DNA from: an uncultured Bacteroidota bacterium
GTDB lineage: Bacteria > Bacteroidota > Bacteroidia > Chitinophagales > Chitinophagaceae
DNA: 34,589 nt
Reading direction: 5' to 3'
Assembly: GCA_903887005.1 (NCBI GenBank)
Contig: CAISOH010000334.1
Coordinates: 1 to 34,589 of the forward strand
A program made the translations under genes and the position numbers. Below, piece after piece: positions 32,284-34,450 of the stretch (the first letter of the stretch is position 1; the number at the start of each line of letters is the position of its first letter). The notes below the pieces were generated by a model. The model had not been told where the DNA came from. It saw only the letters and a list, made by a program, of their open reading frames with translations, and did no database searches.

Positions 32284-34086
32284 ATGACTTTAGAAGATTT
32301 AATTAGTAAAGGTTATTTCCCAAGAGAATTGCCACCGCCATTTAATACGAAAGAATTTGCTGCAAAATATAATTTAATCAAGAACATTTTGAAAGGCGCA
32401 ATTGCCAATGAGCCGTCAAGATGTGTTACATATTCAATAGCCAAAATAGGGCTTATTAGAAAGTTAATACAAATACCTAACCCAATGCATCAAGCCAAAT
32501 TATGCGAAGTAATTATTGATAATTGGATTGACATTGAAAAGATTTATAAGCATTCGAATTTCTCCTTTAGTCGTCCTAAAATATCCGGGGATAGAGCTGC
32601 GAACCCTGGCAAATTCAAAGATTTTTTAAGAAAAGGATTTTTAACTTCATACTCCTATAATTATGAATTAAAAACAGACATTTCAAAATATTATCCTACG
32701 ATTTATACTCATAGTATTCCATGGGCAATGCATGGAAAATCTGTAGCAAAAAAATCACCTAAAAAGAATACGCTTTTAGGCAATAAAATTGATGAATGTG
32801 TAAGACAAACTATGTATGGTCAAACTATTGGTTTGCCAATTGGCCCAGACACTTCATTAATTATTTCTGAATTAATTGGTTGCTCTATAGATACTCAATT
32901 AATGTCCTTAATGCCAGGCTTAAAAGGGTATCGATATATTGACGATATGTATTTCTATTTTCATAGCTTATCTGATGCGGAAAGTGGATTGCTCCAATTA
33001 CAAAGAACATTAAAAGAGTATGAACTTCAAATAAATGCTGAAAAAACAAAAATCAGGAAATTACCAATTGGAATCGAGCAAGAATGGGCAATTCATTTGA
33101 GAGCATTTATTTTTAGAGAAACAGAATTTACTCAATACAATGATATTATTAGTTTTTTCAGTATGTCATTTGATTTAGCTAATAAATTCCCCAACGAGTA
33201 TGTTTTATCTTACACAATAGAAAAAATAAAGAGAATTAATTTATTGTCAGATAAGAACTACGAACTATTGGAGACTATGTTTTTGAAAACAATGATTGCT
33301 GAACCATCAACAATAAAAGAAGTTTTTAGATTCCTTTTCACTTACCATAGTAAAGCTGACATCAAGAAAATTGAAAAAGTGCTTTTTGATTTTATTATTT
33401 ACCATTGTCAGCGTGCAAATGACTATGAACTATCTTGGGCTTTATGGATTGCAAAAACTTTTAAAATCAAAATTCCAAAAATAATCTCAGAATTGCTTTC
33501 TAAATCTGAAGATGTAATTTCAAATATAATAACATTGGACTTACTTCATTCTAGTTTAATTGAAAGGGCGGATTTGGATATTTCATCTTTCGAATCGAAA
33601 TTAGATGAACTATCTTTAATGGATGAAAACTGGCTTTTATCATATGAAATTGCATGTAAAAAGTGGTTAGGGCGTCGGGCATATTCTTACATAAATAACG
33701 TTCCCTATTTCAAAATTTTGCGGCATAATAAAATATCTTTTTATGATGAAACTCTCCAGATTGAACCGATTGAATTAAATAAAAGTGAAAAGTCTAATGA
33801 ACCTAAAGTTCGTTATACTGATGGGAATGAAAAGAATAAGCCGCCTATTAAAAAAACAGAAATTTCCAGTACAGAACAAACATCTATTGCTGGATATAGT
33901 TTTGATGGGGATAATGAAGACTATGAAGATGAAGCTAATTTCGTAGAATATGAAGGTGAGGATGATTTTGAAGATTATGAAAGTGAAGGTGAAAATGATG
34001 ATGAAGATTATGAAGGCCATGATAATAATGAAGATTATGAAGGTGAAGATGATAACGAAGATTATGACGGCGAGGACAATAATTAA
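32284..34086 (+). CDS. Reverse transcriptase (RNA-directed DNA polymerase), Abi/UG (DRT)-like, with acidic repetitive C-terminal tail
   Basis: ELKTDISKYYPTIYTHSIPWAMHGK (motif A), GQTIGLPIGPDTSLIISELIG (motif B), GYRYIDDMYFYF (YIDD, motif C), LQINAEKTKIRKLP (motif D); alpha-helical C-terminal region; tail FDGDNEDYEDEANFVEYEGEDDFEDYESEGENDDEDYEGHDNNEDYEGEDDNEDYDGEDNN. Confidence 0.88.
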   Translation: MTLEDLISKGYFPRELPPPFNTKEFAAKYNLIKNILKGAIANEPSRCVTYSIAKIGLIRKLIQIPNPMHQAKLCEVIIDNWIDIEKIYKHSNFSFSRPKISGDRAANPGKFKDFLRKGFLTSYSYNYELKTDISKYYPTIYTHSIPWAMHGKSVAKKSPKKNTLLGNKIDECVRQTMYGQTIGLPIGPDTSLIISELIGCSIDTQLMSLMPGLKGYRYIDDMYFYFHSLSDAESGLLQLQRTLKEYELQINAEKTKIRKLPIGIEQEWAIHLRAFIFRETEFTQYNDIISFFSMSFDLANKFPNEYVLSYTIEKIKRINLLSDKNYELLETMFLKTMIAEPSTIKEVFRFLFTYHSKADIKKIEKVLFDFIIYHCQRANDYELSWALWIAKTFKIKIPKIISELLSKSEDVISNIITLDLLHSSLIERADLDISSFESKLDELSLMDENWLLSYEIACKKWLGRRAYSYINNVPYFKILRHNKISFYDETLQIEPIELNKSEKSNEPKVRYTDGNEKNKPPIKKTEISSTEQTSIAGYSFDGDNEDYEDEANFVEYEGEDDFEDYESEGENDDEDYEGHDNNEDYEGEDDNEDYDGEDNN

Positions 34087-34132
34087 GGCTATGAGGGTGA
34101 ATGAGGGTGAATATGATCATGAAGAAAAATAA
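33901..34132 (+). repeat. Degenerate coding tandem repeat (GAAGATTATGAAGGTGAAGATGAT-like) of the RT tail, extending past the stop codon
   Basis: Repeated gaagattatgaaggtgaagatgataa/gaagattatgacggcgag. Related EGEYD-type sequence continues after the TAA at 34084-34086. Confidence 0.8.
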
Positions 34133-34288: not shown

Positions 34289-34450
34289 ATGGTAGTTTCC
34301 GAGATTGAATTAAATGAACTTTTGAGGACAAAGCTTACTTTGGCAACAAAGGAAGATGTAACTCAGGCCAAACTTGATACGGTGAAGTGGATGGTAGGTT
34401 TTTGGATTGTCCAAATGGCTGCAATAATTGGGCTATACCTGAAAAAATAA
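34289..34450 (+). CDS. Candidate 53-aa coiled-coil plus single-TM protein
   Basis: Manual translation: MVVSEIELNELLRTKLTLATKEDVTQAKLDTVKWMVGFWIVQMAAIIGLYLKK*. The 'LATKED...K.D.(I/V)KWM.GFWI.Q' pattern resembles small CCDC90/DUF1640-like coiled-coil membrane proteins. The reading frame is open back to 34247. Confidence 0.6.
   Translation: MVVSEIELNELLRTKLTLATKEDVTQAKLDTVKWMVGFWIVQMAAIIGLYLKK

What the first reader, a model, noticed from the sequence alone, without database searches (positions are those of the whole stretch)
32284..34086. Stand-alone reverse transcriptase with a long, almost purely acidic repetitive C-terminal tail
Seen: RT motifs A-D including YIDD, then a helical C-terminal region of more than 200 aa, then ~60 residues of D/E/N/Y/G repeats (EDYEGEDDNEDY...) with no Lys or Arg. 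Known: Abi-type and UG/DRT reverse transcriptases (AbiA, AbiK, Abi-P2, DRT classes) combine an RT with a helical C-terminal region and act in phage defence. I know of no acidic repetitive tail as a standard part of these families. Inference: the tail could be a nucleic-acid mimic that autoinhibits the RT, a priming or regulatory element (Tyr-rich, which is notable because AbiK and related RTs prime from protein), or a contact site for a partner. This is the best candidate for an undescribed system here.
Basis: partly seen in the sequence, partly recalled or inferred. Interest (0 to 1): 0.82.

Follow-up and report, generated by a model that had tools for sequence, protein, structure and literature searches.

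The report
DRT6 phage-defence polymerase with acidic tail
This is a member of a known family of bacterial anti-phage DNA-making enzymes (DRT6); its odd acidic, tyrosine-rich tail is not a quirk of this gene but an expanded version of a disordered tail found throughout the family, whose tip is unusually often a tyrosine that might serve as the primer for DNA synthesis.

Summary
In detail: a 600-aa ORF at 32284-34086 (+) with a complete RT domain (YIDD), an alpha-helical domain, and a 112-aa disordered tail (net charge -35) whose last ~75 residues hold no Lys/Arg and carry a 27-bp tandem repeat (DNEDYEGED, Tyr in 7/7 units). It is a DRT6/UG12 reverse transcriptase: best solved match 9wy8 (DRT6) by sequence and fold, and it groups with 9wy8 apart from DRT4 in a tree. 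So it is a known kind of stand-alone defence RT, not an undescribed system. The tail is not strain-specific. All 26 DRT6-clade proteins collected have a 15-143 aa tail after the same core end motif, while most DRT4-clade proteins stop there. Eleven of 24 tails are more acidic than any equally long stretch of their own core, and the solved DRT6 protein has an unresolved acidic tail too. The tip is strongly enriched in Tyr (last two residues 12/24, 1.9 expected). Best mechanism (inferred): template-independent, protein-primed ssDNA synthesis, primed from a tail Tyr as shown for DRT3b and DRT9; the acidic part is a mobile, non-sticking tether. A rival: a few tails end in the SSB-like DLPF. No wet-lab test exists; AlphaFold2 does not dock the tail.

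The parts
32284..34086 (+). DRT6/UG12-type reverse transcriptase, 600 aa
   Evidence: PADLOC Drt6 569 bits and Drt4 577 bits; 9wy8 DRT6 262 bits against 101 for DRT4; Foldseek TM 0.93 of target to 9wy8; tree
32284..33100 (+). RT-like domain; catalytic D132 and YIDD 218-221; 3' boundary approximate
   Evidence: RVT_1 match 124-258; invariant D132, D220, D221
33101..33750 (+). alpha-helical (alphaRep-like) domain ending in the conserved core motif K-I-S-F-Y-D; 5' boundary approximate
   Evidence: AlphaFold2 helices to residue ~481; F486 invariant
33748..34083 (+). disordered acidic C-terminal tail, 112 aa, net charge -35
33910..34101 (+). 27-bp tandem array (consensus D N E D Y E G E D), seven units, Tyr codon TAT in all; runs past the stop codon
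34084..34086 (+). stop codon TAA lying inside the repeat array at a position that is GAA in five of the six earlier units

Best explanation
The gene is a DRT6 (UG12, class 1) defence-associated reverse transcriptase that works alone. Like its solved relatives it most likely assembles into a hexamer and makes single-stranded DNA without a nucleic-acid template, starting from a hydroxyl of its own chain; a phage DNA-binding protein then lets that DNA accumulate and the cell stops growing before the phage can spread. The C-terminal tail is a disordered, often strongly negative arm that is standard for DRT6. Its tyrosines, usually one at or near the very tip, are the most likely primers: the arm carries a Tyr into the active site, and its acidity keeps it from sticking to the DNA channel. 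In this gene the arm has grown by 27-bp tandem duplication, giving a Tyr about every nine residues and so several candidate primers on a longer tether. Shown here: family, fold, tail disorder, recurrence of the tail, C-terminal Tyr enrichment, repeat anatomy. From literature: protein priming and phage trigger in relatives. Inferred: that this tail primes, and that the acidity serves that purpose. Family membership alone I hold at about 0.95; the stated confidence is for the whole mechanism with tail priming.
For: Membership. Tail in all 26 DRT6-clade members collected (15-143 aa) against 0-6 aa in most of the DRT4 clade. Tyr in the last two residues in 12 of 24 tails against 1.9 expected from within-tail shuffles; aromatic in the last three in 19 against 6.6, with tails otherwise unalignable. 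Tails more acidic than any equal-length core stretch in 11 of 24. The solved DRT6 has the tail ...FDDMDEEYFDSDHSDDDDD, and its model holds 495 residues, so the tail is unresolved. Precedent: DRT3b primes from Y666, the penultimate residue of its C-terminal tail (PMC13174585); DRT9 from Y496/Y498 in a tail ending NYDYE (PMC12483538); DRT4 described as Tyr-primed and template-independent, and DRT6 as activated by the same phage ORF55 (PMC13213688, PMC13314766). Tyr codon identical in 7/7 repeat units. Accessory gene: 30% GC against 40% in the window, a relative in only one other of 35 congeneric genomes (39% identical), absent between the M14 and nnr genes in three congeners; the nearest relative lies beside an AriAB (PARIS) gene.
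Against: AlphaFold2 leaves the tail undocked in this protein and in the short-tailed relative L018 (pLDDT about 30), with a shallow alignment of 12. Six of 24 DRT6 tails have no Tyr in the last seven residues (L013, L017, L002, L034, L037, L043), so a tip Tyr is not universal; four of them have a Tyr in the N-terminal loop where AbiK and Abi-P2 prime, so the primer could lie there. This protein's own last Tyr is seven residues from the end, and a nonsense change appears to have cut off the final repeat. Seven-of-seven Tyr identity may partly reflect recent duplication. The shuffle test ignores relatedness among the 24 proteins. No phage, DNA-product or priming experiment on this protein exists.
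Confidence: 0.45

Rival explanations
1. The tail is an SSB-like lure. Its acidic, aromatic-ended tip imitates the C-terminal peptide of host or phage SSB and binds SSB partners (for example ExoI, which silences DRT9 products) or phage ssDNA-binding proteins, coupling the nascent ssDNA to its degradation or its trigger.
For: Three tails end in [DE]LPF (L053 YDDLPF from the window's own genus, L034 DDDDDDDLPF, L006 EPTDLPF) against 0.003 expected in shuffles; the host SSBs of the window's genome and of L053's genome end in DDLPF. DRT9 product is degraded by ExoI and protected by a phage DNA-binding protein (PMC12483538).
Against: Most DRT6 tails, this one included, do not end in PF; the pattern was noticed after the fact in a small set; L006 belongs to the DRT4 clade.
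Confidence: 0.15
2. The tail is an autoinhibitory ssDNA mimic: the acidic arm occupies the DNA channel between the RT and helical domains until product or phage protein displaces it.
For: High negative charge next to an enzyme whose relatives hold ssDNA in a channel; very acidic tails also in L054 and L059 (net -31, -51).
Against: Several DRT6 tails are short or near neutral (L018, L012, L004, L028), so acidity is not needed in the family; no confident contact with the core in the models.
Confidence: 0.15
3. The tail repeat is a neutral by-product: a disordered linker enlarged by slippage of a GA-rich 27-bp unit, with priming done elsewhere (N-terminal loop) and no function for the repeat.
For: The array runs past the stop, unit lengths vary and one unit is 33 bp; tail lengths vary from 15 to 143 aa across the family; the particular array was seen in this gene only.
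Against: Acidic tails with aromatic tips recur in distant relatives with unrelated sequence; differences between units fall most often at third codon positions, 46 against 29 and 23, though the counts are small.
Confidence: 0.25

Closest known systems
DRT6 / UG12 defence-associated reverse transcriptase (PDB 9wy8)
   Same: Same RT plus helical architecture over the whole core (33% identity, TM 0.93 of target), same clade, single gene, acidic disordered C-terminal tail
   Different: Here the tail is longer, carries a 27-bp repeat array with Tyr in every unit, and ends in N rather than an aromatic
DRT4 / UG15 (PDB 9ltm, 9vdo, 9l9s)
   Same: Sister clade, similar fold, single gene, template-independent ssDNA synthesis reported for DRT4
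   Different: About 24% identity; most DRT4-clade proteins end right after the core motif without a tail; NCBIfam Drt4 score 249 is below its cut-off of 450
DRT3b / UG8
   Same: Class 1 RT with helical domain and a C-terminal tail whose penultimate Tyr (Y666) primes DNA
   Different: Works with DRT3a and an ncRNA; makes alternating poly(dCdA); only the RT core aligns
DRT9 / UG28
   Same: C-terminal tail tyrosines near the end (NYDYE) act as probable primers; hexameric
   Different: Class 2, ncRNA-templated poly-dA; distant in sequence
AbiK and Abi-P2
   Same: Class 1 RT plus helical domain, protein-primed untemplated synthesis; Abi-P2 relatives L010, L039, L040 also have acidic tails
   Different: Primer Tyr lies in an N-terminal loop; more distant in sequence and fold

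Membership tests
DRT6 / UG12 | Best profile and nearest solved relative are DRT6 | tested here: met
   PADLOC Drt6 569 bits; Drt4-named models PDLC02177 and PDLC02179 score about as high here and on other DRT6-clade members, so the names do not separate the two; PDB 9wy8 262 against 101 bits for DRT4
DRT6 / UG12 | Groups with solved DRT6 apart from solved DRT4 in a tree | tested here: met
   27-row clade with 9wy8, SH-aLRT 95; 11-row DRT4 clade with 9ltm, SH-aLRT 100
DRT6 / UG12 | RT catalytic motifs intact and helical C-terminal domain | tested here: met
   D132, YIDD; model and Foldseek
DRT6 / UG12 | Single-gene system without ncRNA or effector partner | tested here: inconclusive
   No Rfam match and no defence partner recognised upstream; the contig ends 503 bp downstream
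DRT6 / UG12 | Anti-phage activity and untemplated DNA synthesis | not testable with these tools
   Needs experiments
DRT4 / UG15 | NCBIfam Drt4 equivalog cut-off | tested here: not met
   249 bits against a cut-off of 450
Group II intron RT or retron | Maturase profile or adjacent intron or msr/msd | tested here: not met
   group_II_RT_mat 35 bits against a cut-off of 300; no Rfam match

The most novel reading that the evidence does not exclude
DRT6-type RTs carry on their C-terminus a fast-evolving acidic arm whose aromatic tip does two jobs: its Tyr primes ssDNA synthesis, and in some lineages it imitates the SSB C-terminal peptide to recruit the host exonuclease or the phage SSB that decides whether the DNA is destroyed or becomes toxic. 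The repeat array in this gene would then be a multi-primer arm with several alternative start points for DNA on one subunit.
Probability: 0.12. Interest if true: 0.75.

Novelty: new member of a known kind. Interest (0 to 1): 0.42.

Why it matters
DRT6 product chemistry and mechanism are described as unresolved in the reviews read here. The survey gives a concrete, testable prediction (the primer is a C-terminal tail Tyr) and shows that a part unresolved in the solved structure is a recurrent, probably functional feature of the family. If the SSB-like tips hold up, they would link these enzymes directly to the host exonuclease that keeps a related system (DRT9) silent.

Tried and rejected
An undescribed system: rejected, it is DRT6. 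Group II intron or retron RT: rejected. Strain-specific repeat without counterparts: rejected as a description of the tail in general; the particular 27-bp array was seen only here. Orthologs in the genus to follow the tail over short times: only one other of 35 genomes has a relative, 39% identical. E. coli genomes and plasmids for close relatives of three acidic-tailed DRT6 genes (L057, L058, L059): no useful match. AlphaFold2 docking of the tip: inconclusive. A clean trade-off between N-loop Tyr and tail Tyr: suggestive only. The primary DRT4 paper (Wang et al. 2026) is not held and the DRT6 paper (Wang et al. 2025) did not turn up in the held library, so their priming data were read through reviews only.

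Full report
What is there. The ORF 32284-34086 (+) encodes 600 residues. The RT core carries D132 and YIDD; the helical region ends with a conserved motif, ISFYD here; the 112 residues after it form a tail with net charge -35. The last ~75 residues have no Lys or Arg. The window is a whole contig of a Bacteroidota-like genome (T9SS sorting domains), and the contig ends 503 bp after the stop.

What it is. Profile, sequence, fold and tree agree on the DRT4/DRT6 pair, and the solved structures and the tree point to DRT6/UG12. PADLOC gives Drt4 577 and Drt6 569 bits; the same names are near-tied on other members of the clade, so the model names do not separate the two families, but the solved structures do: 9wy8 (DRT6) 262 bits, DRT4 101 bits, AbiK 68 bits. 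The AlphaFold2 model matches 9wy8 with TM 0.93 of the target and DRT4 with 0.83. In a 47-protein tree the window falls in a 27-row clade with 9wy8, apart from an 11-row clade holding solved DRT4. NCBIfam's Drt4 cut-off is not met.

The tail is a family feature. I collected 26 DRT6-clade proteins (the window's included) from genomes, viral contigs and plasmids. All extend 15 to 143 residues beyond the core motif; DRT4-clade proteins mostly extend 0 to 6. The closest relative (67% identical, L011) has a 74-residue, net -21 tail ending DIDYLNYH, without the repeat. Others end GADDGY (L044), SDY (L054, net -31), LDYFDR (L059, net -51), DPFDY (L018), EETDIDYF (L035). The protein of the solved DRT6 ends with ...FDDMDEEYFDSDHSDDDDD and up to 17 further residues that I did not see, and its deposited model has 495 residues, so the tail was not resolved. 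Tyr stands in the last two residues in 12 of 24 non-redundant tails against 1.9 expected, and an aromatic in the last three in 19 against 6.6. Not every tail is acidic: 11 of 24 exceed every same-length window of their own core in acidity.

The repeat. Seven units of 27 bp (one 33) run from 33910 to 34101, the last beyond the stop. Differences fall most at third codon positions (29, 23, 46 at positions 1, 2, 3). The Tyr codon is the same in all seven. The TAA at 34084 stands where five of the six earlier units have GAA, so the stop looks secondary; an assembly error cannot be excluded.

Mechanism. Published relatives synthesise DNA primed by their own side chains: AbiK Y44 and Abi-P2 Y61 in an N-terminal loop (PMC9508834), DRT9 Y496/Y498 in the C-terminal tail, DRT3b Y666 as the penultimate residue, and DRT1 a serine (PMC13275509). 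DRT4 is reported as template-independent and Tyr-primed, and DRT6 as activated by the same phage protein. The frequent tip Tyr of DRT6 tails, the lack of a conserved Tyr in the DRT6 N-loop and the precedents make tail priming the best guess. It is not shown: AlphaFold2 does not dock the tip, and six tails lack a Tyr near the end.

A second pattern. Three tails end in [DE]LPF, the SSB C-tip, against 0.003 expected; the SSBs of the window's genome and of L053's genome end in DDLPF. This was noticed after the fact and concerns a minority.

Context. The gene is 30% GC in a 40% GC window. In three congeners the upstream M14 gene is followed directly by the nnr gene (identified by eye), with no RT between; here nnr is on another contig, preceded by what reads like the start of a transposase on the opposite strand (by eye). 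The relative in G448 lies next to an AriAB gene and that of Sinorhizobium next to an AAA ATPase and a helicase. The window's own upstream genes are housekeeping or surface proteins. These fit an accessory, single-gene defence module.

Noticed in passing
window 34084-34104: The repeat array continues in phase after the TAA stop (GGC TAT GAG GGT GAA TGA), so the stop seems to have arisen inside the array.
   Followed up: partly
L010:959-2542, L039:2605-4149, L040:2578-4125: Abi-P2-type RTs also end in acidic, sometimes repetitive tails (ELEPELEYESAYESEE, DHEFEDEDLDDED).
   Followed up: no
L053:1372-2979, L034:2950-4752, L006:1333-2910: DRT4/DRT6-type RTs whose C-terminus ends in the SSB-like DLPF.
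   Followed up: partly
L044, L045 (Rhizobiaceae plasmids): DRT6 gene directly downstream of an AAA ATPase and an ATP-dependent helicase, an arrangement reminiscent of Gabija.
   Followed up: no
L104:5006-7117: AriAB (PARIS) gene immediately upstream of the closest relative of the window RT.
   Followed up: yes
window 34289-34450: Small ORF of 53 aa with a hydrophobic C-terminal segment downstream of the RT; no family match.
   Followed up: partly
L120 (G000:C290), first 170 bases of the reverse complement: A reading frame resembling the start of a transposase lies upstream of the nnr gene, at what would be the right side of the insertion.
   Followed up: partly
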